This document shows, piece after piece, positions 3 to 37,711 of a stretch of DNA of 64,000 nt. Numbering within the stretch: the stretch's first letter is position 1; each line of letters opens with the position of its first letter. A program made the translations under genes and the position numbers. The notes beneath the pieces were generated by a model. It saw nothing but the letters and a program-made list of their open reading frames with translations, was not told the DNA's origin and did no database searches. Origin of the DNA: CBDCXE01 sp965223725 [NCBI: Nitrospinota bacterium] (lineage in GTDB: Bacteria; Nitrospinota_A; UBA7883); the NCBI GenBank assembly GCA_965223725.1, contig CBDCXE010000005.1, forward strand, positions 124,001 to 188,000, in the 5' to 3' direction.

Positions 3-497
3 GTTATTGAAGTAGAGAAAAAGGTTGGCGATGAATGGGAAATGTTCTGGAAACCTATGGCATGCATGCATTGCGGCGAGCCTGACTGTCTTCCCGTTTG
101 CCCAACCAAGGCTATATCCAAGAGAGATGAAGATGGCATCGTACTTGTGAGCAAAGACTTATGTATTGGATGCATGGAGTGCTTCAGGGCATGCCCCTTC
201 GGGACTCCTCAGCTTGGGTTTGATGGAAAGATGGAAAAGTGCAACCTTTGCATTCATAAAGTGGCTTATGGCGGAGTGCCGGCATGTGTAGAAAATTGCC
301 CCTCGGAGGCTATGTTTTTCGGCACCATGTTAGAGCTGTCTAACATGATGCGAGCAAAATATTCCAGTAAATCCTTGGGCAATAGCGAGCAGGTATACAA
401 CCCTTCTGTGGCTCCAGGCGTTGGAAACGGGAAAAAGGAGGTGACCAGAAGAGGCGCGTCAATTAATTTTCATAGCAGAAAAAAGGCTATACGCTAA
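3..497 (+). CDS. 4Fe-4S ferredoxin-type electron-transfer protein (5' end cut by window)
   Basis: The frame is open to the left edge, so the N-terminus is missing; the first internal ATG is at 42. Cysteine clusters typical of DmsB/HybA/CooF-like multi-cluster ferredoxins are visible: CMHCGEPDC with a following CP, CIGCMECFRACP, then CNLC and a later CP. These suggest three or more 4Fe-4S clusters. The C-terminal 40 residues are basic and lack cysteines. The protein probably passes electrons to a partner oxidoreductase or to the corrinoid methyltransferase system just downstream, for example for low-potential reactivation of cobalt; that role is inferred from position only. The next gene starts 30 bp later on the same strand. 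Confidence 0.8.
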   Translation, partial: VIEVEKKVGDEWEMFWKPMACMHCGEPDCLPVCPTKAISKRDEDGIVLVSKDLCIGCMECFRACPFGTPQLGFDGKMEKCNLCIHKVAYGGVPACVENCPSEAMFFGTMLELSNMMRAKYSSKSLGNSEQVYNPSVAPGVGNGKKEVTRRGASINFHSRKKAIR

Positions 498-527
498 TTT
501 CAATACTATAGAAAGGACACCGTTAAC

Positions 528-1064
528 ATGGCAGATACAGGATTACTCAATGGCGTAGATACTGAGATATTCATGAGCACAGTCGACGCAGTGAAGGATA
601 ACCCAAATACGGGCGCTACGAGTTGGCGCGTAAGTACTAAGTGGAAAGGAGGGCTGAAAACTGAAGCTACCATCAGGCAATTTACTTTAAACTTTGATGA
701 GCCTGAAGGCATAGCTGGTGAAGATTCAACGCAAAGTCCGCATGAAACAGTATTGGCATGTTATGGCGCATGTCTGACTGTTGGCATGTCACTTAGGGCC
801 GCGCTGAAGGGGATTGCGCTTCAGAATGTTGAGATTGAACTGGAAGGTTTGATTGATCTGCCTGGTTTTCTAGGCCTTGCAGGAATCCAGGGCCTTAAAG
901 ATACACCTGGGTTTCATACAGTGAGGGCCACAATGAATGTCCAGAGTGAAGCTCCTAAAGAGGATATTCAAGAGCTTTTCGATACAGTTGTAAAGTACTC
1001 GCCCGTTGGGCTAACTCTTTCGCAGCCAGTTAAAATGGAAAGCACGCTAGTGTACAAAGGTTAA
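528..1064 (+). CDS. OsmC/YhfA-like family protein
   Basis: 178 residues, the usual size for the OsmC/Ohr superfamily. The central helix carries SPHETVLACYGACLT, the family position of the peroxidatic cysteine. The second conserved cysteine appears to be replaced by serine in the C-terminal KYSPVGLTL segment, as in many OsmC-like proteins that are not classical Ohr. OsmC proteins reduce organic hydroperoxides with dithiol donors; whether this one does so cannot be told. An RBS-like AGGACA lies before the ATG. It sits between a ferredoxin and a corrinoid protein in one apparent operon, so it may protect oxygen-sensitive cofactors (inference). Confidence 0.8.
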   Translation: MADTGLLNGVDTEIFMSTVDAVKDNPNTGATSWRVSTKWKGGLKTEATIRQFTLNFDEPEGIAGEDSTQSPHETVLACYGACLTVGMSLRAALKGIALQNVEIELEGLIDLPGFLGLAGIQGLKDTPGFHTVRATMNVQSEAPKEDIQELFDTVVKYSPVGLTLSQPVKMESTLVYKG

Positions 1065-1157
1065 TTACAGGAAAGCCATTTATTAGTAAGCGTTTGAAAA
1101 TGCATTACTTGTGCAATTTCAAGCAATTAAATTTTACTTTAGAATAAGGAGAGGTGA

Positions 1158-1820
1158 ATGTCTAAAGAGACAGAGATACTGGATGGATTGCATGACGCTA
1201 TCTTGGATTTGGACAAGGATGCGGCTGTGAGTTTAGCAGAAGAATTAGTGAAAACCGGGGGGGACCCACTCAAAGCCATAGATTCTATGGGCACAGCGAT
1301 GAACGAATTGGGCGTGAAATTTGAAAAGATGGAAGTTTTTCTTCCGGAAGTTGTTATTGCTTCTAAGGCGCTTAAGGCAGCCATGGTAATTTTGAAGCCT
1401 GAGATCTTGAAGCAGGGTGAGGAAACAGGCGCAGCAGAAAGGCCTGTTGTTGTCATTGGTACTGTGAAGGGTGATATTCACACCATTGGTAAGGACATGG
1501 TTGCTACTTTGTTGATGACCGCTGGCTTTGAAGTGGTGGACATGGGCCCGGATACTCCGCCTTCGGACTTTCTCAATAAGGCCGAAGAATTGGGCGCCAC
1601 CATCATCGCGGCAACTGCCATGATGTCCACTACCTTGCCAATACAAAAAGATCTTGTTGATTTCCTTGACGCAAAGAAACTTCGCGACAAATATAGCGTT
1701 ATGGTCGGTGGTGGTGTTGCTTCGCAAGGTTGGGCGGAGAGCATTAATGCAGATGGTTATGGTCAGGATGCTATAGAAGCAGTTAAAGTAGCGAAAAACT
1801 TGGCTTCTAAGAAAAAGTAG
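1158..1820 (+). CDS. Methyltransferase cognate corrinoid protein (MtmC/MtbC/MttC family)
   Basis: 220 residues with the family's two-domain plan: an N-terminal helical cap (about 1-90) and a C-terminal B12-binding Rossmann domain. The base-off/His-on cobalamin motif DxHxxG is present as GDIHTIGK, with D106, H108 and G111. The segments GADIIAATAMMSTT-like (about 150-160) and VGGG (about 191) match the rest of the B12-binding fold. The protein carries the methyl group on cobalt between the substrate methyltransferase and the acceptor methyltransferase. An RBS (GGAGAGG) precedes the ATG. Its two expected partners are the next two genes, so the cluster holds a full corrinoid methyl-transfer set. 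Confidence 0.93.
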   Translation: MSKETEILDGLHDAILDLDKDAAVSLAEELVKTGGDPLKAIDSMGTAMNELGVKFEKMEVFLPEVVIASKALKAAMVILKPEILKQGEETGAAERPVVVIGTVKGDIHTIGKDMVATLLMTAGFEVVDMGPDTPPSDFLNKAEELGATIIAATAMMSTTLPIQKDLVDFLDAKKLRDKYSVMVGGGVASQGWAESINADGYGQDAIEAVKVAKNLASKKK

Positions 1821-1899
1821 GAAAGCATCTAGCATTATGCAAGGGCTTAATCTAAATAAATATCAGAATATTACACAAATATAAAAAGGAGATGTTGCA

Positions 1900-3315
1900 A
1901 TGCCAAATACAGGATCAAAAGGTAGGCTACTTGAAGTTTGGTCTAGGGGTGAGACCGGCGAAGTATGTTTTAATACCGAGTTTGATACAGATAGATTCTG
2001 GCCATTACTGAAATCAATCACGGAAAAACACAAGATTGAATATGACCCTAATCGCATTGTGCCTTGGGATGATTCAGAGCTGGACGCGATATGGGATGCA
2101 GGGATGGAGTTTCTGCTAGAGTGCGGAATCCTGAACGTTACCAACGAAAGATTGATCATGTTCGAGGAGTCCGAGGTCAAAAGTGTGCTGGAAAACGTAC
2201 ATAGTGAAACTACTTTAGGTACGGGCAGGGACAGCCTCACTCTCAAGTGGCGCGCGCCAGAGAGCTATGACGAAGGTTTGAACCCGATTGGCGCATTAGG
2301 CAGGATCTTGGGTCCTATTTCTGAAGATATCTATGAAAAGGTAGCCTGGAGTTTTGCCCAGGAGCCGCTTATTGACTTTGTCCACTTCCAGGGCGTTGTA
2401 TTTGAGATTAACGGCACCCCGGTCAAACCGTTCTCTCCTTTTGAGCTTGCGTCAGAGCAAAAAAGGGTAGCTATCGTCAAAGATGTGTGCCGCCGCGCTG
2501 GCCGACCTGGCCTGTCTGATGGTGGCAGTATGCCAGTTACATTGCAGTCAGTGATGGCTGCGGCCCAGCCCGAATGGGGTATGTCGATGGGCGATGTTCG
2601 CCAGACCTATATCATGCCTCATATGAGGACTGATTATGATCAGATGTGTAAGTGTTACATGTGGGATCAGTATGGTAGCAACACCTGGGGAATTCTCCAG
2701 TCCTTTGTCGGCGGTCTGCCTGGTGGGCCAAACACAGCTGTTGTTAACGGCATGGCGGATCTTATTGCCTACATGGTAATGTACGAGCCTTCCATTTGCG
2801 GCCTTTGGGCTAGTGACGCTCTCTATTTCTCCAACACCAGTAAGTTGGCTCTTTATATTGACAACTTTGCTGGCGCTGCGTTTCAGAAGCATGTGAAATA
2901 CCCTGCACTTCTGGGCGGCGGTTGGCAGATGACAGCTGGCATAGGTTGCGAAGAATTTTTCTGGGAAACTGCATGCGGCGCTATCGGCAGCACCACCCTT
3001 GGCTTTTGTACATCCGGTGGAACCGGGTTCCAAAGTGGTGGACTTGATCACGCTTGTGGTTTGGGCGCTAGGTTTGCAGCTGAAGTTGGTCGTGCGGTGG
3101 GTAAGGCCCGCCTGACAAGGAAACAGGCCAATGACATGATGCTCAATATTTTCCCGAAATATATGCCTGGCATAGAAGCAAGGGATATTCATCTTAAGGG
3201 TGGTGATTTCAGAGAAGTTTATGATCTGAAAACCGTAAAGCCGAAGGAAGAATACTTGGCTATTTATGAAAAGGTTAAGGAAGAACTGAGGGGAATGGGG
3301 CTACCCATCGACTAG
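1900..3315 (+). CDS. MtmB-like (monomethylamine methyltransferase family) protein lacking pyrrolysine
   Basis: 471 residues; MtmB proteins are about 458. Collinear matches to archaeal MtmB (recalled, not searched) are seen at GMEFLLECGI (69-), TLGTGRDSL (105-), GPISEDIYE (138-), CRRAGRPG (197-), the C-terminal GLGARFAAEVGRA and the VYDLKTVKPKEEYLAIYE tail. In MtmB the pyrrolysine (in-frame UAG) lies four residues after the glycine of AGRPG; here that position is Gly208, codon GGT at 2521-2523. The protein therefore belongs to the MtmB rather than the MttB branch but cannot use the pyrrolysine imine chemistry. Its neighbours are a corrinoid protein and an MtaA/MtbA-like enzyme, so methyl transfer from an unknown substrate to cobalt is the likely reaction. 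An AAGGAGA RBS precedes the ATG. Confidence 0.85.
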   Translation: MPNTGSKGRLLEVWSRGETGEVCFNTEFDTDRFWPLLKSITEKHKIEYDPNRIVPWDDSELDAIWDAGMEFLLECGILNVTNERLIMFEESEVKSVLENVHSETTLGTGRDSLTLKWRAPESYDEGLNPIGALGRILGPISEDIYEKVAWSFAQEPLIDFVHFQGVVFEINGTPVKPFSPFELASEQKRVAIVKDVCRRAGRPGLSDGGSMPVTLQSVMAAAQPEWGMSMGDVRQTYIMPHMRTDYDQMCKCYMWDQYGSNTWGILQSFVGGLPGGPNTAVVNGMADLIAYMVMYEPSICGLWASDALYFSNTSKLALYIDNFAGAAFQKHVKYPALLGGGWQMTAGIGCEEFFWETACGAIGSTTLGFCTSGGTGFQSGGLDHACGLGARFAAEVGRAVGKARLTRKQANDMMLNIFPKYMPGIEARDIHLKGGDFREVYDLKTVKPKEEYLAIYEKVKEELRGMGLPID

Positions 3316-3325
3316 CGTGAAGCTG

Positions 3326-3458
3326 AAAGCTAACATTGCGTTAGCAAATTCGAAGCAGAGGGTTTGTTTAGCTTCGAATCATGTAACAGGGTGAAACGGC
3401 TCCGGCCTGGTTCTTTGGGATATTTCCCGGAATATTATACAAAGAACTGGCCGGACCG
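3326..3458 (+). promoter_or_regulatory. Three successive hairpins between the MtmB-like and MtaA-like genes
   Basis: The 193-bp gap holds three inverted repeats: GCTAAC/GTTAGC near 3331-3346, TTCGAAGC/GCTTCGAA near 3349-3378, and a long imperfect one at 3397-3458 whose arms pair CCGGCC and GTTCTTTG with CAAAGAAC and GGCCGG. None is followed by a clear T-run, so these look more like RNA-stability or processing structures, or an attenuator, than a classical terminator. I see no cobalamin riboswitch core. Function is inferred. Confidence 0.55.
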
Positions 3459-3508
3459 TTGTTGCCCACATTAGCCGACGACGGCAAATTGCTAGCTGAG
3501 GTATCAAT

Positions 3509-4513
3509 ATGACAGAAGACAATAAATATGAAATTTTCATGAAGGCAATTCGCGGTGAGGAGACTCCGCGCGCTGCAGTAGGCTGTGTGAACCAGACGGT
3601 TAACTATGAGCAGATGGAAGAGCTGGGAATAGGGTGGCCCGACGCCAACTTTAATGCCGATCTTATGGTAGACCTGGCGTATGGAGCATATTCAATCCTG
3701 GGGTATGACGCTGTGAGGGTTCCATTTTGCCAGACAATAGAACAGGAAGCGTTGGGGTGCGGAGTTCTTGAGGGGACTGATAAGAACCTTCCTAGCATCA
3801 ACAAACATCCATATGATATTAACATGACCCCGGTCTTTCCAGAAGACTTCCTCCAGCGGGGCAGGGTCCCGATGATGAGTGAGGTCGTAAAATCCCTTAA
3901 AAAGAAGACCAACAATGAAGTGGCTGTTATAGGTGGAGTCATAGGTCCCTTTACAATAGTGGGGGCGATGATTGCATTGGACGATTTTCTTGAAATAACT
4001 ATGCTGGAGCCGGAAAAGCTGACACCATTTTTGGAGGTGGCCACCAAAGCAGCGACCGCACTGGCCAAGTCTTTGGTCGAAGCTGGCGCTGATGTCATCT
4101 GCGTAGAGGACATGTTAGCGTCGATGGATATGGTAAGCCCCGGAATTTACAACAATCTTGCCTGGTCCTGGGAAAGGGATTTAATACAGGAAATAGACGC
4201 GCCTGTTGTCCTTCATATCTGCGGCAAGGTTGACCATATCATAAAGCCAATGATCGATACAGGCGCAGCGGCTTTGAGCTTTGAGCCAAAAACGGATATT
4301 GAAAAAGTTAAAGAGATTATAAAAGCCGAAGGCAGGAATATTGGCATTGTCGGTGGTGTTCCTGCAATTGAAGATCTTTTTTATGGAAACGCTGAACAGG
4401 TGAAGGAGTCGACACTTAAAGCTATCGATGATGGTTATAACATTATCGCGCCCGGCTGCTCGGTTCCACCTGCCGCATCGACAGAAAAATTGAAGGCAAT
4501 GCTATCGCGATAA
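3509..4513 (+). CDS. UroD-family corrinoid methyltransferase (MtaA/MtbA-like, zinc site present)
   Basis: 334 residues, a single uroporphyrinogen-decarboxylase-like TIM barrel as in MtaA/MtbA. The zinc ligands of the methylcobalamin:thiol methyltransferases are visible: H236 and C238 in VVLHICGK, and C317 in APGCSVPP. These enzymes move the methyl group from the corrinoid protein to a thiol (coenzyme M in methanogens). Whether the acceptor here is coenzyme M, another thiol or something else is unknown. It is preceded by the hairpin cluster at 3326-3458 and followed 30 bp later by a MoxR gene. Together with the corrinoid protein and the MtmB-like enzyme it completes a three-component methyl-transfer pathway. 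Confidence 0.88.
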   Translation: MTEDNKYEIFMKAIRGEETPRAAVGCVNQTVNYEQMEELGIGWPDANFNADLMVDLAYGAYSILGYDAVRVPFCQTIEQEALGCGVLEGTDKNLPSINKHPYDINMTPVFPEDFLQRGRVPMMSEVVKSLKKKTNNEVAVIGGVIGPFTIVGAMIALDDFLEITMLEPEKLTPFLEVATKAATALAKSLVEAGADVICVEDMLASMDMVSPGIYNNLAWSWERDLIQEIDAPVVLHICGKVDHIIKPMIDTGAAALSFEPKTDIEKVKEIIKAEGRNIGIVGGVPAIEDLFYGNAEQVKESTLKAIDDGYNIIAPGCSVPPAASTEKLKAMLSR

Positions 4514-4543
4514 TAAACTAAATATACTGGAGAGGTAAAGCTT

Positions 4544-5428
4544 ATGATGATTGGTCTTGAAAATGAATTTAACCTTGTTCTCCGAGCGCTTGAAAACAAT
4601 GTTCCAGTAATCCTGGAGGGGGAAGCTGGCACAGGTAAAACAGAGATGGCCAAGGAAATCTCCCGTATGCAAAACAAGACACTCTATAGAGTGGATGGAG
4701 ACGAGGAGCTTTCATCATTTAAAATTCAGGGCTGGTTTGATCCTCCCATGGTGTTAAGTAAGGGTTATAACTGGGACTCCTTTTTACCCGGTCCATTAAG
4801 CCAGGCAATGATGGAGGGTGGGTTATTCTTCTTCAACGAGGTCAACCGCGCTCCATCAGAGACTATTAATGCCGTTCTTACCGCTTTGGATGAAAGGATG
4901 ATTACTGTTCCTCGTCTCGGCTGTATCAAGGCCAAAGAGGGGTTTGAATGTATTTTTACGTGCAACCCACTAGACCGTGTGGGTACCAATCCTTTGCCCC
5001 AAGCTTTTTTTGACAGGTGTATATGGTTGAAGCTCGAACATTTACCCCTTGAGCAGGCCATCGAGATAGTACGCTTGAGGACCGAAGAGAGCGATGAACG
5101 TCTTATAAAGACCATTTGCAAGATTACGGATGGTTCCCGAAACCATGAAGAAGTAGTTAGAGGCAAAGGAGGCTCCTTACGAGCCTCCATTTTTATGGTC
5201 AGGCTTGCTTCGGAGTTGAGAAAGCATGAAAATAGTCTTAGTGAAGAAAAGCTTTTTAAAACTGTAGCGAAGAGCGCTTTAGCAAAGCAAATCAAGCTTC
5301 GTTATAACAGCGAGATGGGCGAAGAGGAAGTAATCGAAGATATTGTTGACAACGTACTGGGATTAAAATTCGAGAAAAAAAAAAAGATCGAGCTTGTAAA
5401 GACAAAAGTTCTAAGGACGAAAGGATAG
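4544..5428 (+). CDS. MoxR-type AAA+ ATPase
   Basis: 294 residues with Walker A GEAGTGKT (about 26-33), Walker B LFFFNEVNRA (about 95-104), sensor 1 FTCNP and a conserved FDRC arginine-finger-like segment. This is the MoxR/CbbQ/NorQ/CobS-type AAA+ family, which acts with a VWA protein to remodel or insert cofactors into partner enzymes. The VWA partner follows 5 bp downstream. An RBS (GGAGAGG) stands before the ATG. Because the operon is built around a corrinoid protein, the pair may activate or metallate the methyltransferase system; that is inference by analogy with other MoxR/VWA cofactor chaperones. Confidence 0.88.
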   Translation: MMIGLENEFNLVLRALENNVPVILEGEAGTGKTEMAKEISRMQNKTLYRVDGDEELSSFKIQGWFDPPMVLSKGYNWDSFLPGPLSQAMMEGGLFFFNEVNRAPSETINAVLTALDERMITVPRLGCIKAKEGFECIFTCNPLDRVGTNPLPQAFFDRCIWLKLEHLPLEQAIEIVRLRTEESDERLIKTICKITDGSRNHEEVVRGKGGSLRASIFMVRLASELRKHENSLSEEKLFKTVAKSALAKQIKLRYNSEMGEEEVIEDIVDNVLGLKFEKKKKIELVKTKVLRTKG

Positions 5429-5433
5429 AGGTA

Positions 5434-6324
5434 TTGTTCACTGCCACAGAAGACCCAATACTAATTGGTGAGGAAGAGGTTGAGGACGTAGTATGGGACT
5501 TTGATGAAGATCTTCCCTGTCTGCCCATGGTAGAGAACTACCGGAGACTGGGTAAGAAAGTGAGCCCTAAAGCTCGCAAGATGTTGTTGAACAGCACTGT
5601 GCAGAGTCTATTGCAGGAGGCCAAAAGCATTGCTTCAAAAGGGGGAATTATCACGAAAAAAACGTCCATCGTGCATTATACTCCTGGCTCTGAAATTGAT
5701 CTGGAGTCTACTTTGGAGAATTTGCTGGCAACGGGAACGTACAAGATGCCCACATATTGGGACATGCGTAGCCGCAAGGTCACAAAGATCAGGCGGTGTT
5801 TCGTTGTTTTGGCTGACAAAAGCAACAGCCTCGGGCCTACCATTGATTATGTAGCCCTTGCCGTCAGCATACTTGCTGAAGCTGTCCACGCGGAGGAATT
5901 TTCAGTTTTGTTTTTCGATGACAGGGTCAAAGAAGTTAAATCAATGGACAGTCATAGGGAAACAGGTGATATATTAGAAGAAGTTTTGAATGTACAGTGT
6001 TTTGGGGCAACAGACATGTATAAGGCTTTTGAGGCGGCAAGTAACCAGTTGGCCTTGACGCATGCCGGTATGGAAGGGATCTGCGTAGTAGTGAGTGACT
6101 GCATACCCACGACTGGGCCGGATCCCATTGAAGCTGCAGGAGCGTTGCCTAATGTTGAAGTGCTTTATGTAAGAAATGATGATGCGGCAATTGGCAAAAC
6201 CTGTATAGATGATCTGGAGACTTTACCTAATGTGATGGTTCGTGAAATAAGTGAATTGACTGATATTATCGAGTCCATACAGGATATCGTGTCGTTTGGA
6301 AGTTTGGAGGCGCTACATGAGTAA
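5434..6324 (+). CDS. VWA-domain protein, partner of the MoxR ATPase
   Basis: 296 residues starting with TTG just after the MoxR stop. The C-terminal half is a von Willebrand factor A domain with a metal-ion-dependent adhesion motif DKSNS (DxSxS) in VVLADKSNSLG, a later CFGATD threonine loop and a VVSDC strand. The N-terminal third (about 1-120) is not recognised. VWA proteins of the CoxE/CbbO/BchD type bind MoxR ATPases and the client enzyme. The TTG start is forced by the lack of a nearby in-frame ATG and the tight spacing to the preceding gene; a GAGG lies just before it. Confidence 0.8.
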   Translation: MFTATEDPILIGEEEVEDVVWDFDEDLPCLPMVENYRRLGKKVSPKARKMLLNSTVQSLLQEAKSIASKGGIITKKTSIVHYTPGSEIDLESTLENLLATGTYKMPTYWDMRSRKVTKIRRCFVVLADKSNSLGPTIDYVALAVSILAEAVHAEEFSVLFFDDRVKEVKSMDSHRETGDILEEVLNVQCFGATDMYKAFEAASNQLALTHAGMEGICVVVSDCIPTTGPDPIEAAGALPNVEVLYVRNDDAAIGKTCIDDLETLPNVMVREISELTDIIESIQDIVSFGSLEALHE

Positions 6325-6469
6325 CGTTCATAGGGTGTTTTTGGTTAAAGGTGAGAAAATTGACTTGGGCAAAAATTTATTTAGCATTGCATGAGTTCTT
6401 TTTCTCTTTTAAATGGTGTGGTTCAGAGTGAATCGCAATATGGCAAGTATATGAGGCTATGTAACTAAA

Positions 6470-8554
6470 TTGAAAAACGAAAACAGCGCACATGATACTT
6501 TCCCCAAGCTATTGTTGCGTCAAGCTGAAATCCGTGGGAAGAAGACTGCTAGTCGAAGAAAAGAATTTGGCATTTGGAAAACCTGGAACTGGGCGACGGT
6601 TTCTGAGGAGGTGCGCTATCTGGCGTGCGGTTTAAAGGTCAAAGATTTTAAACGAGGTGAAAATATAGCGATAATGGGGGAAAACGCTAACCTCTATTGG
6701 GCAGCGACTGCTGCGCAATGTTTGGGAGGTGTGGTGGTTCCTATCCATTTAGAGGCGACTGAAGATGAATTAATATATATCCTAAACCATACAAAAAGCC
6801 GTTTTATTCTGGTGGATGATCAGGCGCAGGTTGATATATTATTGGAAATCAAAAACCAATGCCCAAACCTTGTGAAGGTTATTTTCGTCAACCCTATTGG
6901 GATGAAATTCTACACAGATCCCTGTCTCTCTTCCTTTGATTTCATTCGTCAAAAGGGTGTTGAATATGACGAGGAGAACAAAGATTTTTTCGTTGACCAA
7001 ATAGCTCAGGGTGATGGAGAGGATACAGCATTTATCTTCTATACAGCGGAGAAATCGCTGGCGTGGGGTACATCTATTACACAAATATTCACCCATACCG
7101 GTGAGCCTACGGTTCCCTCACTGCCCCTCAAGGGCGAGATGACTGATGAAAAGTTTAAAGGAGTTATGCTGAGTCATAAAGGCCTAATTTCTGCTGCGAG
7201 CAGCAGCGTCAGTGAACTTGGTTTAAATCCAGGTGACGGAATAATTGCATTTTTACCATTGTCGATAGGCGCAAGCATACTGTTTTATTATGCTCAACCA
7301 TATGTCGCCGGGTTTTGTGTCAATTTCCCCGAAAACAATGAAACTGTAGTTACTGATATGCGTGAGATAGGCCCTACCGTTTGCTTCGCCACGCCTAATG
7401 TTTATAAAAGTTTATTAAATCTGATTATGCTTCGGATGGATGAAGCCGGGAAGATAAAGCGATACTTGTTCAATTATTTTAGGCAGATCGCATTCGAGGC
7501 TGGCGCGAATGGTAATAGCCGTAAATCTGGATCTTTTTGGAGACGCGTTCTGCGAAGGATTGGTAAACAGATTTTCTTTGAGCCGCTTAAAAATATGTTT
7601 GGGCTTAAACGAATCCGTGTCGCGTTAACAACCGGTAACCCTATAAGTCCTGAAACGCTCGGCTTCTATCAATCCTTGGGAGTTAATCTAAAACAGTTTT
7701 ACGGTCCTCCTGAGGGATCGTTTTTTGTTTCTGTGCAGCGGGACGGTCAAATAACATTCGACAGCGTCGGGTTTGCGACAAAAGATGTAGAAATCAAAAT
7801 TGCGGAAGAGGGAGAAGTCTTATTCAAGGGCCCAAACGTATTCAAAGGCTATTATGGGAAATCAGACAATAATACTGCGAAGGACCCAGAGGGCTGGACT
7901 AAAACCGGAGATACAGGCCTGATTGACGAGAATGAAGAACTCTTTGTTTTTGGAGCGATGGAGGACTATTGCAAGCTCACCGATGGCACTGACATGTCCC
8001 CGACTGTTGTAGAGAGCATGCTAAAGTCATTTCTTTACATCAAGGAAGCGGTGGTTTTTGGGCATGGCAGACCCTTCGCGGTGGCTTTTATCAGCATTGA
8101 CGGTAAATCAGTATCTCGTTGGGCGGATAGACAAGACATCATATTTTCTGGTTATGCGGAGCTGTCCCAGCAGGAGGAGGTGTACGACCTTATTCGATCT
8201 TGCGTAGAGTCGATCAACTCTGAATTGTGCGACGCTGGTCAGGGAGGGGCGCTAATTAACCGGTTTTTAATTCTTCCTAAAGAAATTGACAGCAGTGAAT
8301 TGAGCCCAGACGGCAAGTTAAACCGTAATGTTATTGTTGTTAAATATATTGAGTTGATTAATTCTTTATACGCAGGAAAGGATCGGTATGTATTGGACGC
8401 GGAGTCCAATACAAATGGTTCACAAACCCAGCTGGCCAGCACCGAGATCAAGATTAGTGATGCGCGGGCCTGGTGCCGCCTCCATGATGATGTCATTGAA
8501 GTAAGTCCATCATTTGGATCAAGAAAAAAGAAATCGGAGAATGATCGATGGTAG
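6470..8554 (+). CDS. AMP-binding acyl-CoA-synthetase-like protein with a degenerate ATP loop
   Basis: 694 residues, long-chain acyl-CoA synthetase architecture. The canonical YTSGTTGxPKGV loop is not intact: residues 191-196 read YTAEKS, about 30 extra residues follow, and the fold resumes at FKGVMLSHKGL (229-239). The second motif reads YGPPEGS instead of YGxTE; TKTGDTG and a C-terminal PDGKLNR lysine segment remain. It may bind ATP poorly or have a changed role. The start is TTG; the stop overlaps the next gene (LivG-type ATPase) by 7 bp, so it is translationally tied to the transporter. Acyl-CoA-ligase-like genes beside Liv transporters occur in other Proteobacteria; the function of that association is not clear to me. 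Confidence 0.82.
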   Translation: MKNENSAHDTFPKLLLRQAEIRGKKTASRRKEFGIWKTWNWATVSEEVRYLACGLKVKDFKRGENIAIMGENANLYWAATAAQCLGGVVVPIHLEATEDELIYILNHTKSRFILVDDQAQVDILLEIKNQCPNLVKVIFVNPIGMKFYTDPCLSSFDFIRQKGVEYDEENKDFFVDQIAQGDGEDTAFIFYTAEKSLAWGTSITQIFTHTGEPTVPSLPLKGEMTDEKFKGVMLSHKGLISAASSSVSELGLNPGDGIIAFLPLSIGASILFYYAQPYVAGFCVNFPENNETVVTDMREIGPTVCFATPNVYKSLLNLIMLRMDEAGKIKRYLFNYFRQIAFEAGANGNSRKSGSFWRRVLRRIGKQIFFEPLKNMFGLKRIRVALTTGNPISPETLGFYQSLGVNLKQFYGPPEGSFFVSVQRDGQITFDSVGFATKDVEIKIAEEGEVLFKGPNVFKGYYGKSDNNTAKDPEGWTKTGDTGLIDENEELFVFGAMEDYCKLTDGTDMSPTVVESMLKSFLYIKEAVVFGHGRPFAVAFISIDGKSVSRWADRQDIIFSGYAELSQQEEVYDLIRSCVESINSELCDAGQGGALINRFLILPKEIDSSELSPDGKLNRNVIVVKYIELINSLYAGKDRYVLDAESNTNGSQTQLASTEIKISDARAWCRLHDDVIEVSPSFGSRKKKSENDRW

Positions 8555-9372
8555 ACGAAAAAACAATACTGGAGTTAAAAGATATATCGCTTAGTTTTGG
8601 TGGTGTCAAAGCTATCTCGAATGTTAGTTTGGCTGTCAAGGAGGGCGAGGTATGCTCCTTTATTGGGCCTAATGGGGCAGGCAAAAGCTCATTACTTAAT
8701 GTGATTACTGGAGTTTATCAACCCCAGGAAGGCTCTGTCGCGTTTAATGGAAAGGTTTGTAAATATGTGAGGCCATGGGATGCCGCTGTTCATGGGTTTG
8801 AGCGAACGTTCCAGAATATCGCTTTGTTTAAAGGTATGTCGGTCCTTGACAACATTATGACCGGAAGTACATTGAAGATGAAGGCTTCATTTATAGAGCA
8901 GGCGTTTTGGTTGGGTAGAGCTAGAAAAGAGGAAATAGAGAGCCGCAAGAAAGCTGAAAAAATAATAGAATTTCTCCATATCCAGGCAATAAGAAAAACA
9001 TTGGTAGGGAAGCTGCCATATGGTCTTCAAAAACGTGTGGAGCTGGGTCGGGCGCTTGCTGGGGAACCTAAATTATTGTTGCTGGACGAACCGCTGGCTG
9101 GGATGAATCTCGAAGAAAAAAAGGAGATGGTCACGTTTATCCTGGAGTTAAATAAAGAGTTTTCTACGACTATAGTGCTTATTGAGCATGATATTGGAAT
9201 AATCATGGATATTTCTGACCATATTGTTGTGTTGGACTTTGGGTGCAAGATAGCAGATGGCACTCCCGAAGAAGTTCGCAATAACAAAGACGTTATTGCG
9301 GCTTATCTTGGCACAAAGGCCGACAGGGAAGAGATAGAAAGTGATCGTATACAGCACCAGGAAAGTAATTAG
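8548..9372 (+). CDS. livG: Liv-type ABC transporter ATP-binding protein (LivG family)
   Basis: 274 residues, normal for LivG. Walker A is GPNGAGKSS (about 35-43), the signature is LPYGLQKRVELGRAL (the usual LivG variant of LSGGQ) and Walker B is LLLLDEP with a downstream IEHD switch histidine. A C-terminal BCA_ABC_TP-like tail is present. It energises import through the two permeases encoded next. It overlaps the acyl-CoA-synthetase-like gene by 7 bp. The substrate is probably not simply leucine; the gene name denotes family, not specificity. Confidence 0.93.
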   Translation: MVDEKTILELKDISLSFGGVKAISNVSLAVKEGEVCSFIGPNGAGKSSLLNVITGVYQPQEGSVAFNGKVCKYVRPWDAAVHGFERTFQNIALFKGMSVLDNIMTGSTLKMKASFIEQAFWLGRARKEEIESRKKAEKIIEFLHIQAIRKTLVGKLPYGLQKRVELGRALAGEPKLLLLDEPLAGMNLEEKKEMVTFILELNKEFSTTIVLIEHDIGIIMDISDHIVVLDFGCKIADGTPEEVRNNKDVIAAYLGTKADREEIESDRIQHQESN

Positions 9373-9466
9373 GCATCGTGTCATGTAACAGGTAGGAGGG
9401 AATGTTATATAGGCTGGCTTTTTAGCAACGTAATCTTGTTTTTTAGAAAATTAGGATGGAGATAGA

Positions 9467-10351
9467 ATGGCTTTTTTCTTTCAGGTATTAGTCGCTGGTT
9501 TATTATCCGGAATGATGTATTCCCTGGTGGCAATAGGATATGTTCTTATTTACAAGGCGTCCGGGGTGTTTAATTTCGCCCAGGGGGCGATGGTTCTTGC
9601 TGCTGCGCTTACGTTTGTCAGTTTTCTGGAAATGGGGATGGGTTTCCCTGCGGCGCTTGTAATAACCATGATAGTAATGGCGCTGCTGGGGATACTTATC
9701 GAGCGTTTTGCTTTGCGGTATCTGGCGAATACATCACTTATCACATTGTTTATGGCGACTGTCGGCCTGGCTTCTATTATAGAAGGCGGGGCGCAGTTTG
9801 TATGGGGTGGTGAAGTTCATGGGTTGGAGCTCGGTATCCCTGATGTTGCTCTTAGCTGGGTAGGTGGATTTACGGTAAGCCAATTTGATTTGTTCGCCGC
9901 TGGTATAACAGGGCTTATGATTTTGGGCCTGGCTATATTTTTCAATAAAACGAAGACCGGCTTGCACTTGCGGGCGATCGCTGACTCTCCCATGGCAGCT
10001 TTGTCAGTTGGTGTGCAATTAAGCAGGATGTGGGCGGTTGTTTGGGCTGTCTCGGGCATCGTGGCTCTGATCGCAGGGCTATTGTGGGGAGCGCGAATGG
10101 GCGTTCAGTTTACACTGAGTGTAGTGGCGTTGAAGGCTTTGCCTGTGTTTGTTTTGGGCGGGTTTACATCAATATTGGGCGCAATCATTGCCGGCTTGAT
10201 TGTTGGCGCCGCAGAAAGTCTGGGAGAGATTTATATTGGAATGGAAATAGGATTTGGCCTTCAGAACTGGATTCCATATGCAGTCGCCATTATTGTCCTT
10301 TTGATCCGTCCTTCAGGCCTATTTGGCGAAAAAACTGTTATGAGGGTATAA
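9467..10351 (+). CDS. livH: Liv-type ABC transporter permease (LivH family)
   Basis: 294 residues, highly hydrophobic, with about eight predicted membrane spans. The family hallmark GYVLIYKASGVFNFAQGAM (about 24-42) is present near the N-terminus, as is the GLLWGARMG/ALPVFVLGGF segment near 200-235 that contacts the ATPase. It is one of two inner-membrane permease subunits. A GGATGGAGA RBS lies before the ATG. The next permease gene starts 3 bp after its stop. Confidence 0.93.
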   Translation: MAFFFQVLVAGLLSGMMYSLVAIGYVLIYKASGVFNFAQGAMVLAAALTFVSFLEMGMGFPAALVITMIVMALLGILIERFALRYLANTSLITLFMATVGLASIIEGGAQFVWGGEVHGLELGIPDVALSWVGGFTVSQFDLFAAGITGLMILGLAIFFNKTKTGLHLRAIADSPMAALSVGVQLSRMWAVVWAVSGIVALIAGLLWGARMGVQFTLSVVALKALPVFVLGGFTSILGAIIAGLIVGAAESLGEIYIGMEIGFGLQNWIPYAVAIIVLLIRPSGLFGEKTVMRV

Positions 10352-10354
10352 TCG

Positions 10355-11413
10355 ATGCTTTACCGCGAAATTGGTCAATTTAAGACCAGCTACAGCGCCG
10401 ACCAGCAAATTTTTACAATGCGCCAGGATCGTTGGGCAATTGTGATCTTGCTATTGGCTGCATTTTTTGTCATACCATTTATCGCGAACGATTACTGGTT
10501 TGTGGCGATACTTATACCTATGTTGACTTTGTCGTTGGCGGCCATTGGCCTTAATATTTTAACAGGTTACTGTGGTCAGCTCTCTCTGGGGGCATCGGCG
10601 TTCATGTCTGTGGGCGGTTTTGCTACTTATAACCTTGTTATTCGGCTTCCTGAAATCCCTTTTCCAATCAGTATATTGTTAGGAGGCGTAATCGCCGGTT
10701 TTGTGGGTGTACTGTTTGGCCTGCCCAGCTTGCGGATAAAGGGATTCTATCTGGTAGTCTCTACATTAATGGCGCATTTTTTCGTGCAATGGCTTTTTGA
10801 TACTTACCAATGGTTTAAGAATTATAATCCACAAGGTGAGATTAAGCCACCGCCTTTCAAACTGTATGGTTTTGTTTTTGACACTCCCGTATCGCAATAT
10901 ATGCTTACCCTGGTGTTTGTTGTTGTGCTGGCCTTCCTTGCAAAGAACATGATGCGTAGTAACCTTGGAAGGCGGATGATGGCTGTGCGCGATATGGAAG
11001 TCGCCGCCGCAGTTATGGGGGTGCCGGTTAAACGAACTAAATTGTTGGCATTTCTGATCAGCTCTTTTTACTGTGGCATTGCCGGCGCGCTTTTCGCATT
11101 TTGCTATTTACAATTACTCGATACAAAAACATTCAGTCTTGAACTCGCGTTTTCTATTGTGTTTATGATTGTTGTGGGAGGTTTAAGCACAATTTTAGGC
11201 TCATTTATAGGGGCGGCGTTTGTTTTTCTGCTACCCATATGGATGAATGCAACTTTTGGTAAATATGGCATTGATCCTTCGCAAATTCAAAATATTTCGA
11301 AGGTCATAATCGGGGCGCTCATTATCATCATAATGATTGTCGAGCCTAATGGTTTGGCGCGGATATGGATAAGGATTAAAGAGAAGCTTAAGAATTGGCC
11401 AACACCTTATTAA
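10355..11413 (+). CDS. livM: Liv-type ABC transporter permease (LivM family)
   Basis: 352 residues with about nine predicted membrane spans. LivM features are visible: LNILTGYCGQLSLG (near 65-78), GLPSLRIKGFYLVVSTL (near 122-138), RDMEVAAAVMG (near 208-218) and the VVGGLSTILGSFIGA ATPase-contact region near 272-286. It pairs with the LivH-type permease directly upstream. The first 25 residues are hydrophilic and the true start could be the ATG at 10418 (MRQDRW), but the close coupling to the previous gene favours 10355. Confidence 0.92.
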   Translation: MLYREIGQFKTSYSADQQIFTMRQDRWAIVILLLAAFFVIPFIANDYWFVAILIPMLTLSLAAIGLNILTGYCGQLSLGASAFMSVGGFATYNLVIRLPEIPFPISILLGGVIAGFVGVLFGLPSLRIKGFYLVVSTLMAHFFVQWLFDTYQWFKNYNPQGEIKPPPFKLYGFVFDTPVSQYMLTLVFVVVLAFLAKNMMRSNLGRRMMAVRDMEVAAAVMGVPVKRTKLLAFLISSFYCGIAGALFAFCYLQLLDTKTFSLELAFSIVFMIVVGGLSTILGSFIGAAFVFLLPIWMNATFGKYGIDPSQIQNISKVIIGALIIIIMIVEPNGLARIWIRIKEKLKNWPTPY

Positions 11414-11866
11414 AACAGGGTTTGTTAATTGCTGGATAACTATTGTTTTAGCAGTGATATTTGGGCGGAATCAATATATTGCTCAGGTATGTGATGGGGA
11501 GAGTTATAGGGTTTGATCTTCTAAATATTGTTAAGGGAGTTTTCCCAGACGGTTGGTTATCTGGCGCGTTTGATGTTCGGGGTTGTGAACATAACATGTA
11601 ATTTTAAAACGTTATGGTTGTCCGTATAAAATGTGTCAAACATGATAAGTAATGACATGGGAAGTAAGAGTTTAGAAAACGAGAAAAATTCAACTGGCTT
11701 AAGATGCCAGATATGGATTTTGAGTAAACCAATTTGGTGGAAGGCGGACATGTGATAACTTTCATCAAGAAGGAAGGTGGTGAAACAGGGGTATTAGAGC
11801 CTTTTTTGAAAAGGGCAATGGTGTCATAAAGTGTTGTAGACTGCAAACTTTACTAGGAGAGTTGTT
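11414..11866. other. Gene-free interval before the binding-protein gene
   Basis: About 450 bp without a credible gene. It must carry any separate promoter for the periplasmic binding-protein gene, which is usually expressed more strongly than the permeases. An AGGAGAG ribosome site ends the interval just before the ATG at 11867. I see no strong sigma-70 pair that I would assert, nor a clear terminator after livM. Confidence 0.4.
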
Positions 11867-13327
11867 ATGAAGGGATTATTGGAAAGAAAGTTACTGGGTC
11901 GGTACAAGAAAGTTGGGTTTGTCGCCGCACTAGCACTCGCTGTTTTGTTTATGTCGACGAGTGCTTTTGCTGAAGGTTTTAGCCTCAACTTTGAGAAAGG
12001 GAAACCTTTTACAGACCATCACAATGTTAACTTGAAGAGGATTATTTATACACCTCTGGCAAGTTACCGAGTCGGGCCATATGCCGCGGGCGGATCTGGG
12101 TATTATGGCGGCGAGATCGATCTTTTTAAATGGATCAATCTGAAGTACGGCGGTATTGATGGTATTCCGATTGTTTGGGATGAATGCGAAACAGAATGGG
12201 ATACTCCGCGTGGCGTTGAATGTTATGAACGTTACAAAAACAAAGGTCCTTACGGCGCGACAGCGAATGACCCTCTAAGTGTGGGTATAGCTTATGCGCT
12301 TCAGGAAAAAACCAGAGCGGACAAAATTCCAAGCATTACTCCGAACCATGGCAACACTGCCTCCCAGGATGGACGCATTTTTCCGTATCAGTTCCCTGTG
12401 CAGATAACCCCTTATGATGAAGCCAACTTGATGGTTAAATATGCTGGCCAGACATTGGGGGGAATGGATAAACTCAAGGGTAAGAAAATTGCCGTACTTT
12501 ACCATGGCTCTGCTTATGGCAGGGAAACCATAGGTTGGCATGATTCGATGGCGGAGATGTATGGTTATGACATCCAGCAGATCGAAATAGCCCATCCTGG
12601 CAACGAACAGACGGCGACCTGGCTGAATGTTAAGCGCTGGAATCCTGATTTCGTATTTTTGCGCGGTTGGGGCGTAATGGTTCCTGTGGCTATTAAGACT
12701 GCGGCCAAAGTAGGTTATCCAATAAGCAAATTGATCGGCAATATCTGGAGTAACTCTGAGGCTGATGTTGTGCCAGCTGGACCTGCCGCAAAAGGTTATG
12801 TGGTTATTAATACCCAGGCCCCTGGTCGGGAATGGCCGCTGATCAATCAGCTTTGGGAAGATTTGTATGAAGGTGGACTCACCGGAAAGAACGAAGGCGA
12901 TATGAGAGATAAAACTAAGGTTGGTAGCGTTTACTATAACCTTGGTGTGGTCGCTGGTATTTTTCATGTTGAGGCCATGAGGGTAGCGCTTAAAAAGTTC
13001 GGTAAGGATATGCCATTGGATGGCAAGCATAAGCGTTATGGATTGGAAAACCTTAACATGACCGATGAGAAGTTGAAAGAATACGGCGTGCTAGGGATGA
13101 TGCAGAATGTGTACACTTCTTGTAAAGACCATACAGGTGGTCACAGAGCGAAGTTTACGCAATGGGATGGCAAGAAGTTTAATGTAATAACACCTGAGTG
13201 GATTGTTGCTGATGAGGACCAGATTTGGGGCTTCATTCACGAACGTTCGGAAAAGTATGCCAAAGAGAAAGGCATCAAAATTCGTAATTGTGATGATCCC
13301 AAGGATGTTATGTATGATTTGAACTAA
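11867..13327 (+). CDS. livK: Liv-type ABC transporter periplasmic substrate-binding protein (long form)
   Basis: 486 residues, longer than classical LivK (about 370). A clear signal peptide is present: basic n-region, hydrophobic core around 18-30 and an Ala-rich cleavage site SAFA/E near residue 36. The mature protein has the type-I periplasmic-binding fold, with segments such as KLKGKKIAVLYHGSAYGRE and the PDFVFLRGWG strand. The substrate is unknown; position downstream of a corrinoid methyltransferase cluster suggests it may capture the methylated compound used there (inference). A strong hairpin follows the stop codon. Confidence 0.9.
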   Translation: MKGLLERKLLGRYKKVGFVAALALAVLFMSTSAFAEGFSLNFEKGKPFTDHHNVNLKRIIYTPLASYRVGPYAAGGSGYYGGEIDLFKWINLKYGGIDGIPIVWDECETEWDTPRGVECYERYKNKGPYGATANDPLSVGIAYALQEKTRADKIPSITPNHGNTASQDGRIFPYQFPVQITPYDEANLMVKYAGQTLGGMDKLKGKKIAVLYHGSAYGRETIGWHDSMAEMYGYDIQQIEIAHPGNEQTATWLNVKRWNPDFVFLRGWGVMVPVAIKTAAKVGYPISKLIGNIWSNSEADVVPAGPAAKGYVVINTQAPGREWPLINQLWEDLYEGGLTGKNEGDMRDKTKVGSVYYNLGVVAGIFHVEAMRVALKKFGKDMPLDGKHKRYGLENLNMTDEKLKEYGVLGMMQNVYTSCKDHTGGHRAKFTQWDGKKFNVITPEWIVADEDQIWGFIHERSEKYAKEKGIKIRNCDDPKDVMYDLN

Positions 13328-13332
13328 TAGTA

Positions 13333-13390
13333 AAGAGGACCTTTTGCGCAGGCTGGCTTTTGTTCAGCTTGCGCAATTCCTCTTGTTTTG
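13333..13390 (+). terminator. Hairpin after the binding-protein gene (terminator or attenuator)
   Basis: Long inverted repeat: outer arms AAGAGGA and TCCTCTT, inner arms TGCGCAGGCTG and CAGCTTGCGCA, followed by GTTTTG. It sits in the 85-bp gap between the binding-protein gene and livF. It probably gives partial termination and mRNA protection, so that the binding protein is made in excess over the ATPase. Confidence 0.75.
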
Positions 13391-13412
13391 ATGATATTGT
13401 AAGGAAATTAAA

Positions 13413-14231
13413 ATGACGTCCATGAGAATGCCGGAATCTGGTCTTATATTGACTGTGAAAAGGATAGAAGTAGTTTACGATTCGGTCATCCTCGCCTTAA
13501 AAGGGCTCACCCTTGAGGTGCCCGAGCGGGGGATAGTTGCTCTATTAGGGGCAAACGGGGCAGGTAAATCGACAACATTGAAATCCATTTCAAGGGTTAT
13601 TTCATCTGAGCGGGGTCAGATAACCAAAGGTGAAATTCTATATAGAGGCCATGATATTACCTCGGCGTCTCCCCATGACCTGGTTCGCCGAGGATTGGTT
13701 CAGGTATTGGAAGGACGCTTTGTTTTTCCGAGTTTGACTATTGAAGAAAACCTGCTGGTCCCTGCTTACATACGCAGTATGTCATCCAAAGATGTGAAGC
13801 AGGAACTGGAGAAGATATATTCTTACTTCCCAAAATTAAAAATGCTACGCTCATCCCAAGCCGGATATACCTCTGGTGGAGAACAGCAAATGCTAGCTAT
13901 AGGGCGCGCGCTTATGGTGAAGCCAGCCTTGGTTTTGCTGGATGAACCATCAATGGGGTTGGCGCCTCAGATTATCGAAGAAATTTATGAAATTATAAGT
14001 GACCTCAATCGCAAGGAGGCTGTAAGTTTTCTTGTGGCAGAGCAGAACGCCGCCATCGCGCTACACTATGCAGATTTTGGTAATATTCTCGAAAATGGTC
14101 GAATTGTAATGTCCGGGAAAGCTAAAGAGCTTAGGGAAAACGAAGACGTGAAAGAGATATACCTGGGAATTGGCGACGGAAGCTCCCATGCCGTTAAGCG
14201 GTATCACTTGCGCAAAGGGCTATTCGCTTAG
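13413..14231 (+). CDS. livF: Liv-type ABC transporter ATP-binding protein (LivF family)
   Basis: 272 residues; LivF is usually about 235-250, so there is a short N-terminal extension and a tail of about 20 residues. Walker A is GANGAGKST, the signature is TSGGEQQML, Walker B is ALVLLDEP, and AEQNAAIAL carries the H/Q-switch region. It is the second ATPase of the importer, separated from the other subunits by the binding-protein gene and the hairpin. The start at 13413 has a TAAGGAAA RBS; an internal ATG (13425) is a possible alternative. Confidence 0.92.
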   Translation: MTSMRMPESGLILTVKRIEVVYDSVILALKGLTLEVPERGIVALLGANGAGKSTTLKSISRVISSERGQITKGEILYRGHDITSASPHDLVRRGLVQVLEGRFVFPSLTIEENLLVPAYIRSMSSKDVKQELEKIYSYFPKLKMLRSSQAGYTSGGEQQMLAIGRALMVKPALVLLDEPSMGLAPQIIEEIYEIISDLNRKEAVSFLVAEQNAAIALHYADFGNILENGRIVMSGKAKELRENEDVKEIYLGIGDGSSHAVKRYHLRKGLFA

Positions 14232-37685: not shown

Positions 37686-37711
37686 ATGTCCACTATAACG
37701 GGGGAAGTCCA

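What the first reader, a model, noticed from the sequence alone, without database searches (positions are those of the whole stretch)
1158..4513. MtmB-family methyltransferase without pyrrolysine in a full corrinoid methyl-transfer cluster
The protein at 1900-3315 aligns over its length with monomethylamine methyltransferase MtmB, not with MttB. The pyrrolysine position, four residues after AGRPG, is Gly208 (codon GGT). Characterised MtmB enzymes depend on pyrrolysine. Non-pyrrolysine members of the MttB family are known to demethylate glycine betaine and similar compounds; an MtmB-branch counterpart is, to my knowledge, little described. A corrinoid protein with intact DxHxxG and an MtaA/MtbA-like zinc enzyme flank it, so the set looks complete and functional on a new substrate.
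Basis: partly seen in the sequence, partly recalled or inferred. Interest (0 to 1): 0.78.

Follow-up and report, generated by a model that had tools for sequence, protein, structure and literature searches.

The report
Pyrrolysine-free MtmB-type methyltransferase gene cluster
A probably bacterial gene trio is likely to strip methyl groups off an unidentified compound, using a relative of the archaeal methylamine enzyme MtmB that lacks its special amino acid pyrrolysine; such pyrrolysine-free relatives are already known, but this one sits on a deep branch of its own with a rebuilt active site.

Summary
ORF 1900-3315 is a full-length Pfam MtmB (PF05369, 206 bits); its only convincing PDB hits are MtmB entries. 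The predicted fold matches MtmB at Z 49, against 20.5-22 for MttB and MtgB. There is no pyrrolysine codon: AGRPG is followed by L-S-D207-G208, and G208 (pairwise) or D207 (family alignment) falls on Pyl202. It lies between a corrinoid gene and an MtaA-like zinc enzyme, both with intact motifs. A Synergistota genome holds an orthologous trio (65, 56 and 40% identical) plus a corrinoid activator, without the window's OsmC, AAA, VWA and ligase genes. The trio is therefore the likely working unit.

The novelty claim is only partly right. Pyrrolysine-free MtmB homologues are in print: MtqB for tetramethylammonium and choline (PMC13044021), EmtA for estrogens (PMC7448270). What stands out is the branch: window protein and ortholog form a 100/100 clade, the window protein is at most 29% identical to any other listed full-length family member, and residues around the pyrrolysine are replaced. 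Substrate unknown. A new variant of a known kind, moderate interest.

The parts
1158..1820 (+). corrinoid protein (MtbC/MttC/MtgC type), cognate methyl carrier
   Evidence: PF02607 + PF02310; TIGR02370 174.5 bits, under its 215.3 cut-off; MttC 7xcn 4e-42; DIHTIG at residue 106; 56% identical to the corrinoid gene of the ortholog locus L118
1900..3315 (+). non-pyrrolysine MtmB-family methyltransferase (substrate:corrinoid), 471 aa, ends in TAG
   Evidence: PF05369 206 bits; 1l2q/1tv2 5e-40; AlphaFold2 pLDDT 78, pTM 0.84, Foldseek TM 0.90-0.92 to MtmB, VIA Z 49; 65% identical to L118 5755-7167
2518..2523 (+). codons of D207 and G208 (GAT GGT), the pyrrolysine position
   Evidence: codons printed; G208 opposite Pyl202, D207
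3316..3508 (+). 193-base gap between mtmB-like and mtaA-like genes holding strong hairpins (candidate mRNA element)
   Evidence: MFE -75.5, z -5.88, 0 of 200 shuffles as low, folded as 3313-3508; no Rfam family here
3509..4513 (+). MtaA-like zinc methyltransferase (methylcorrinoid:thiol or other acceptor)
   Evidence: PF01208 207 bits; PRK06252 281.5 over cut-off 244, TIGR01463 256.7 over 235.4, but MtaA_Meth 292 under 400; MtaA 4ay7 6e-62; H236-I-C238, C317
528..1064 (+). OsmC-like protein, same strand, role unknown
   Evidence: PF02566 48.9 bits; OsmC_like_Se below its cut-off; not found in L118
4544..5428 (+). MoxR/MadB-like AAA ATPase, possible helper of the trio; not in the ortholog locus
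   Evidence: PF07728; no match at E 1e-20 in 185 Synergistota genomes, the ortholog's included; AAA-VWA pairs of another type beside some archaeal non-Pyl mtmB genes
5434..6324 (+). CoxE-like VWA protein, pair with the AAA ATPase; not in the ortholog locus
   Evidence: PF05762; not found in L118

Best explanation
A three-part corrinoid methyl-transfer system. The MtmB-like protein (MT1) binds a small methylated compound in its TIM barrel and hands the methyl group to Co(I) of the corrinoid protein encoded just upstream. The MtaA-like zinc enzyme (MT2) then passes the methyl from methyl-Co(III) to an acceptor: coenzyme M or another thiol, or tetrahydrofolate. MT1 does not use a pyrrolysine adduct, so the donor must already be activated; a positively charged quaternary-amine or sulfonium methyl donor is my best guess (about 0.35 by itself). 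Shown here: family, fold, lack of Pyl, loss of the conserved residues around it, intact corrinoid and zinc motifs, conservation of the trio in a Synergistota genome. Inferred: direction of transfer, donor, acceptor.
For: PF05369 full length and MtmB fold. Corrinoid gene about 80 bp upstream and MtaA-like gene 193 bp downstream on the same strand, with motifs. A locus in a Synergistota genome keeps corrinoid, MtmB-like, activator (RACo), DUF1638 and MtaA in one run. A corrinoid gene sits directly upstream of 21 of 21 MtmB-family copies in the 20 Synergistota loci L102-L121. Columns invariant in 63 of 63 Pyl sequences (E229, E259, Q333, Y335 of MtmB) are Q235, I265, G341, Q343 here, while the ortholog pair shares W263, W303, W342, D207 and D306. 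A pyrrolysine-free MtmB homologue is shown to demethylate quaternary amines (PMC13044021).
Against: No activator was detected in the window. No transporter specific for amines is seen; the nearby ABC genes are of the branched-chain amino acid type. The MtaA-like protein is only 40% identical to the one in the ortholog locus, less than the other two parts, so MT2 may differ in use. The pocket argument rests on an alignment at about 27% identity and on recalled roles of the four residues; no coordinates or ligand model could be examined. EmtA shows that the family can also run in the methylating direction.
Confidence: 0.72

Rival explanations
1. It is an MtqB-type tetramethylammonium/choline methyltransferase, that is, a bacterial member of the published MtqB branch.
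For: MtqB is a non-Pyl MtmB homologue with a cognate corrinoid protein under the neighbouring locus tag, and its branch has bacterial members (PMC13044021). The archaeal non-Pyl group with adjacent corrinoid genes (L082, L084, L087, L089) is my candidate for that branch: found in 5 of 111 genomes of the family, its first two members 77% identical. Its copy in G194 is the window protein's best hit in the archaeal searches (159 bits, 29%).
Against: In those 111 genomes no listed full-length match to the window protein exceeds 29% identity. The candidate group is a starred clade without the window protein. The paper reports 78 and 87% identity between MtqB and two Methanococcoides homologues.
Confidence: 0.12
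2. It works in the methylating direction like EmtAB: the MtmB-like subunit moves a methyl group from the corrinoid onto an organic acceptor, to start its breakdown.
For: EmtA is described as MtmB-related and Pyl-free (PMC7448270). The same strand carries an acyl-CoA ligase, solute transport genes and iron-sulfur/FAD redox proteins, as a catabolic operon would.
Against: An MtaA-like methyltransferase, which in methanogens removes the methyl from the corrinoid, is beside it, whereas EMT uses SAM as donor. No ligase or OsmC-like gene was found in the 13-kb ortholog locus, and only one LivG-like hit of 71 bits at its far end. EmtA's sequence could not be reached, so kinship is untested.
Confidence: 0.1
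3. It is a decayed or moonlighting copy without methyltransferase activity.
For: All four residues recalled as the Pyl surroundings are replaced; the contig also carries conjugation genes and transposases.
Against: Intact 471-aa frame; 65% identity to a Synergistota ortholog with no gap over 467 aligned residues; corrinoid and zinc motifs intact.
Confidence: 0.05

Closest known systems
Monomethylamine methyltransferase MtmB (PF05369; 1l2q, 1nth, 1tv2)
   Same: Whole-length homology, same TIM-barrel fold (Z 49), corrinoid partner of the same type, MtaA/MtbA-type second enzyme
   Different: No pyrrolysine; E229, E259, Q333 and Y335 replaced; about 27% identity
MtqB, tetramethylammonium/choline methyltransferase of Methanococcoides methylutens Q3c (PMC13044021)
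   Same: Pyrrolysine-free MtmB-family MT1 with a cognate corrinoid protein under the neighbouring locus tag
   Different: No listed full-length homologue in 111 genomes of the Methanosarcina family is above 29% identity to the window protein; other residues at the Pyl position; the MtqB sequence itself was not compared
EmtA of EmtABCD, estrogen methyltransferase of Denitratisoma (PMC7448270)
   Same: Bacterial, MtmB-related, Pyl-free, with a corrinoid subunit (paper's words)
   Different: EMT methylates its substrate with SAM as donor; no MtaA-like partner named in the passages read; sequence not compared here
Ga0180325_111810 of 'Ca. Formimonas warabiya' DCMF (PMC9768040)
   Same: Non-Pyl MtmB superfamily protein in a bacterium
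   Different: Function unknown; sequence not compared here
MtgB/MttB superfamily (glycine betaine and similar; 9yce, 2qne, 7xcl)
   Same: Same kind of job and barrel class, non-Pyl versions
   Different: Structural match much weaker (Z 20.5-22, TM 0.42-0.54); no MttB Pfam hit

Membership tests
MtmB family (PF05369) | Full-length match to the family profile above its curated cut-off | tested here: met
   206.1 bits against 25, profile 4-450 of 450
MtmB family (PF05369) | MtmB fold rather than MttB/MtgB | tested here: met
   TM 0.90-0.92, Z 49 to 1l2q/1nth against Z 20.5-22 to MttB/MtgB
Pyrrolysine-dependent monomethylamine methyltransferase | In-frame TAG at the Pyl202 position | tested here: not met
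   G208 (GGT) or D207 (GAT) there; 63 of 114 aligned rows are of the Pyl type (62 with TAG plus MtmB1 itself), the window is among the other 51
Pyrrolysine-dependent monomethylamine methyltransferase | E229, E259, Q333, Y335 around Pyl (roles recalled, invariance measured) | tested here: not met
   Q235, I265, G341, Q343 in the window; invariant in 63 of 63 Pyl sequences
MtqB branch (tetramethylammonium/choline) | Lies inside the MtqB clade | tested here: inconclusive
   MtqB sequence not in hand; the archaeal candidate group is a starred clade without the window protein, but a joint clade is not rejected (p 0.192); best identity 29% among listed matches in 111 genomes
MtqB branch (tetramethylammonium/choline) | Demethylates tetramethylammonium or choline | not testable with these tools
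   Needs enzyme assay
EmtA | Sequence kinship with EmtA and estrogen methylation | not testable with these tools
   EmtA's sequence and phylum could not be reached with the scans left
Three-component corrinoid methyltransferase system | Cognate corrinoid protein with DxHxxG next to MT1 | tested here: met
   DIHTIG, residue 106, gene about 80 bp upstream
Three-component corrinoid methyltransferase system | MT2 with metal site | tested here: met
   MtaA-like, H236-x-C238 and C317 aligned with 4ay7
Three-component corrinoid methyltransferase system | Reductive activator of the corrinoid (RamA/RACo) | tested here: inconclusive
   None detected in the 64 kb window with the L118 RACo as query; present in the ortholog locus; the window's genome is not held

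The most novel reading that the evidence does not exclude
The window protein and its Synergistota ortholog found a third functional class of pyrrolysine-free MtmB enzymes, next to MtqB and EmtA. Its barrel has gained tryptophans (W263, W303, W342) and aspartates (D207, D306) that could cage a cationic methyl donor not yet known to be demethylated anaerobically, with the methyl leaving through an MtaA-type methyltransferase in a probable bacterium, and with the AAA-VWA pair next door as an ATP-driven helper that loads or revives the corrinoid enzyme in place of RACo.
Probability: 0.3. Interest if true: 0.65.

Novelty: new variant of a known kind. Interest (0 to 1): 0.46.

Why it matters
Non-Pyl MtmB homologues are numerous, and in the one published tree those outside the highlighted clades are of unknown function. 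Their roles bear on which methylated compounds anaerobes can use and on how pyrrolysine came and went in this fold. This cluster offers a compact, testable trio from a deep branch that the published functions do not clearly cover, and an MtaA-type second step whose methyl acceptor is an open question.

Tried and rejected
Led nowhere: protein scans of viral contigs and genome contigs with the single protein and of viral contigs with a two-sequence alignment gave no relatives; tblastn against plasmids and phages gave none. A C-terminal motif pattern found no viral contig and six genome stretches, which gave the first genome handles. PHROGs gave nothing; NCBIfam has no hit for this protein. Deep tree order is unresolved: joining the window clade with the Pyl clade or with the MtqB-candidate group is not rejected (p 0.197 and 0.192), and the join with the Synergistota V-type clade has support of only 62/12.8; the tree program warned that long branches meet, this join among them. 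Host: the DNA search with 24 kb of the window matched 59 bp of a transposase in an Acinetobacter plasmid and the ligase's best listed plasmid hits were Xanthobacter and Aminobacter at 37-38%; neither tells the host.

Dropped rows: 166 ORFs matched, 4 were dropped for covering under 350 query positions, 162 were reduced to 112 unique; the second tree used 41 of the 114 rows, chosen by me. Short fragments with higher percent identity (for example 46% over 83 residues in G370) were not counted as relatives. The 20 Synergistota loci with fetched neighbourhoods come from 19 of the 24 genomes with a match, plus G160.

Considered and weakened: an AAA-VWA pair as a standing partner of non-Pyl MtmB. 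Such a pair, of another type (AAA 26% identical, VWA without a significant match), lies beside the MtqB-candidate genes of G194, G262 and G728, 3 of the 5 genomes that have one. Against it: the same AAA gene is found in 47 of 111 genomes of that family, so mostly without an MtqB-candidate; no AAA or VWA hit was found in 42 of the 46 fetched loci searched (the four with hits are L082, L084, L194 and L196, the last being the same place as L082); and there was no match to the window's AAA at E 1e-20 in 185 Synergistota genomes, the ortholog's among them, though that empty answer had no positive control. It stays a lead.

Considered and rejected: better fit to MttB/MtgB. Pyrrolysine elsewhere in the protein: no in-frame TAG before the terminal TAG; TAG ends 6 of 15 genes of this run, so it looks like an ordinary stop here. 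No Rfam riboswitch in the window (one hit only, a group II intron).

Full report
What is there. Three same-strand genes fill 1158-4513: a corrinoid protein (220 aa), an MtmB-like protein (471 aa) and an MtaA-like protein (334 aa). The bases before the first two genes carry AAGGAG-type ribosome sites (printed). The middle protein matches PF05369 over its length at 206.1 bits and no other Pfam family; NCBIfam gave no hit. MtmB1 entries are its only convincing matches in the PDB.

The pyrrolysine position. AGRPG is followed by L205-S206-D207-G208 with codons CTG TCT GAT GGT. The pairwise alignment puts G208 opposite Pyl202. An alignment of 114 rows (112 family members from searched genomes, the window protein and MtmB1) opens a one-residue gap and puts D207 there; among the non-Pyl rows printed, only the close ortholog shares this gap. 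In 63 of 63 Pyl sequences (62 with TAG plus MtmB1), E229, E259, Q333 and Y335 of MtmB do not vary; I recall these from the MtmB structure papers as the pyrrolysine surroundings. The window has Q235, I265, G341 and Q343 at these columns, the ortholog H, I, A and Q. Both share W263, W303, W342, D207 and D306, which the consensus of the other groups mostly lacks: at W342 the Pyl and M-type groups have Tyr, and at D306 one two-member group (L003/L033) also has Asp. By strand parity with E259, W263 and Q267 should point into the barrel; that is inference from the model's strand limits, since no coordinates could be measured.

Fold. AlphaFold2 on the window protein with eight translated relatives gave mean pLDDT 78.4 and pTM 0.84. 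Foldseek: MtmB TM 0.90-0.92, MttB and MtgB 0.42-0.54. VIA-align: MtmB Z 48.8-49.0 over 448-450 residues at 2.0 A, MttB/MtgB Z 20.5-22.0.

Relatives. No whole genome is held for the window. Starting from six motif hits, PF05369 was found in 24 of 149 Synergistota genomes, 23 over the cut-off. A search with the ortholog found 23 of 185 at E up to 1e-30; only one of these, G068, carries the ortholog, the others are at 25-31% identity to it. No listed full-length match was above 29% identity. In a 41-row tree the window protein and the G068 protein form a 100/100 clade on a stem of 1.5 changes per column. The Pyl clade, the archaeal M-type clade, the archaeal group with adjacent corrinoid genes and the Synergistota V-type clade are each starred and exclude it. 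The order among these deep clades is not resolved, and long branches meet there.

The trio is the likely unit. In G068 (locus L118) the order is corrinoid, MtmB-like, RACo activator (PF14574 320 bits), DUF1638, MtaA-like. Identities to the window are 56%, 65% and 40% for the three shared parts. The window's OsmC, AAA, VWA and ligase were not detected in that 13-kb locus; one LivG-like ABC hit of 71 bits lies at its far end, after a periplasmic binding protein of PF01497. In the 20 Synergistota loci L102-L121, 21 of 21 MtmB-family copies have a corrinoid gene directly upstream, a RACo-type gene lies in 13 of 20, and a URO-D/MtaA-like gene in 15 of 20, at only 48-91 bits outside L118. The ortholog in 1 of 185 Synergistota genomes suggests horizontal transfer (inference).

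Second step. The MtaA-like protein passes the PRK06252 and TIGR01463 cut-offs but not that of the methanogen equivalog MtaA_Meth (292 of 400 bits). It aligns with the solved MtaA 4ay7, including H-x-C and the later C. Clusters of bacterial MtaA-like proteins have been proposed to work on methyl-sulfur or methyl-selenium compounds, and the part of tetrahydrofolate there is left open (PMC10418091, passages; one search found none of its terms). The acceptor here is unknown.

Wider surroundings. From base 3 to 16251 the genes with a family match are all on the + strand: 4Fe-4S subunit (cut by the window edge), OsmC, the trio, AAA, CoxE-like VWA, AMP ligase, branched-chain-type ABC transporter with binding protein, and a 4Fe-4S/FAD pair whose FAD subunit is closest to chain E of the aldehyde oxidoreductase entry 8c0z. 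Whether these serve the methyltransferase cannot be told. AAA-VWA pairs load or revive metal enzymes elsewhere (CobS/CobT, CbbQ/CbbO, NorQ/NorD, CoxD/CoxE; recalled). Pairs of another type, with a CbbQ/NorQ-type AAA and a VWA protein of about 1000 aa, stand beside the MtqB-candidate genes of 3 of 5 genomes, but the AAA gene occurs in 47 of 111 genomes of that family, so the link is only a lead. Beyond 19 kb lie integrase-core transposases, a group II intron, an RHS protein and F-type conjugation genes. The three best listed plasmid matches of TraG, at 34-37% over half its length, are Geobacter, Desulfosarcina and Pelobacter, while 69 of the 89 matching records belong to the ten commonest genera, all gamma- or alphaproteobacterial; I infer, weakly, a Desulfobacterota host.

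Literature. PMC13044021 (abstract and sections 8, 15, 16, 18 read) shows that MtqB, a non-Pyl MtmB homologue, acts on tetramethylammonium and choline and calls this the first function shown for a non-Pyl MtmB. PMC7448270 (passages) says EmtA is related to MtmB and lacks Pyl. PMC9768040 (passages) reports a non-Pyl MtmB-superfamily protein with the greatest rise on dichloromethane. PMC9842639 (passages) compares MttB with MtmB; PMC10989822 (passages) describes a Bathyarchaeia O-demethylase without known homology; PMC2933860 (one passage) was of no further use. Searches. In what I read of the seven papers opened, this cluster is not described; the other hits were seen as listings only.

Verdict. 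The reading as an MtmB-type, Pyl-free methyl-transfer trio is well supported, but the kind is already known; what is new is a separate deep branch with a rebuilt pocket and unknown substrate.

Noticed in passing
window 3313-3508: The gap between the mtmB-like and mtaA-like genes folds far better than shuffles (-75.5 kcal/mol, z -5.88, 0 of 200 shuffles as low), with two long hairpins and no T-run directly after the longer one in the printed bases; perhaps an mRNA element that sets different levels of MT1 and MT2. The hairpin arm is not repeated elsewhere in the window beyond chance.
   Followed up: partly
L082 1188-5003, L084 1379-5235, L194 4-4532 (archaeal loci): A CbbQ/NorQ-type AAA gene and a VWA gene of about 1000 aa lie beside MtqB-candidate mtmB genes, recalling the AAA-VWA pair after the window trio; but the AAA gene is in 47 of 111 genomes of the family.
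   Followed up: partly
window 14450-16251: A 4Fe-4S protein and a FAD/NAD oxidoreductase: the FAD protein's best PDB match is chain E of aldehyde oxidoreductase entry 8c0z (2e-52), the 4Fe-4S protein matches chain C of it more weakly (1.5e-10, eighth row); the large subunit is not among the genes examined.
   Followed up: partly
window 3-497: A 4Fe-4S subunit of the formate dehydrogenase-N beta / 2vpw / DMSO reductase type II kind runs off the window start, so a molybdenum or tungsten enzyme gene may lie upstream.
   Followed up: no
window 50058-55422: F-type conjugation genes TraG, TraH and TraF; the three best listed plasmid matches for TraG are Geobacter, Desulfosarcina and Pelobacter, suggesting a conjugative element near the methyltransferase operon.
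   Followed up: partly
window 55790-56653 and 62237-63100: Two integrase-core (IS3-like) transposase genes with identical Pfam scores on the same strand flank a block with a toprim protein.
   Followed up: no
window 41558-48160: A 2200-aa RHS-repeat protein with a 309-bp tandem array of 3.8 copies at 46497-47668 in its gene.
   Followed up: no
window 37693-39077: Group II intron: reverse transcriptase plus Rfam RF02012 on the minus strand; the reverse transcriptase is about 70% identical to intron proteins on Yersinia and E. coli plasmids.
   Followed up: no
L118 9133-9807: A DUF1638 gene is embedded in the ortholog methyltransferase operon, and a DUF1638-like hit (87 bits) also lies in L103 near another non-Pyl MtmB; its role is unknown.
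   Followed up: no
L083, L085, L091, L093-L099 (archaeal loci): A large archaeal non-Pyl MtmB group (motif like AGREGLALMGP, mostly Met at the Pyl position) shows no corrinoid gene in these 12-kb loci, unlike the other groups.
   Followed up: partly
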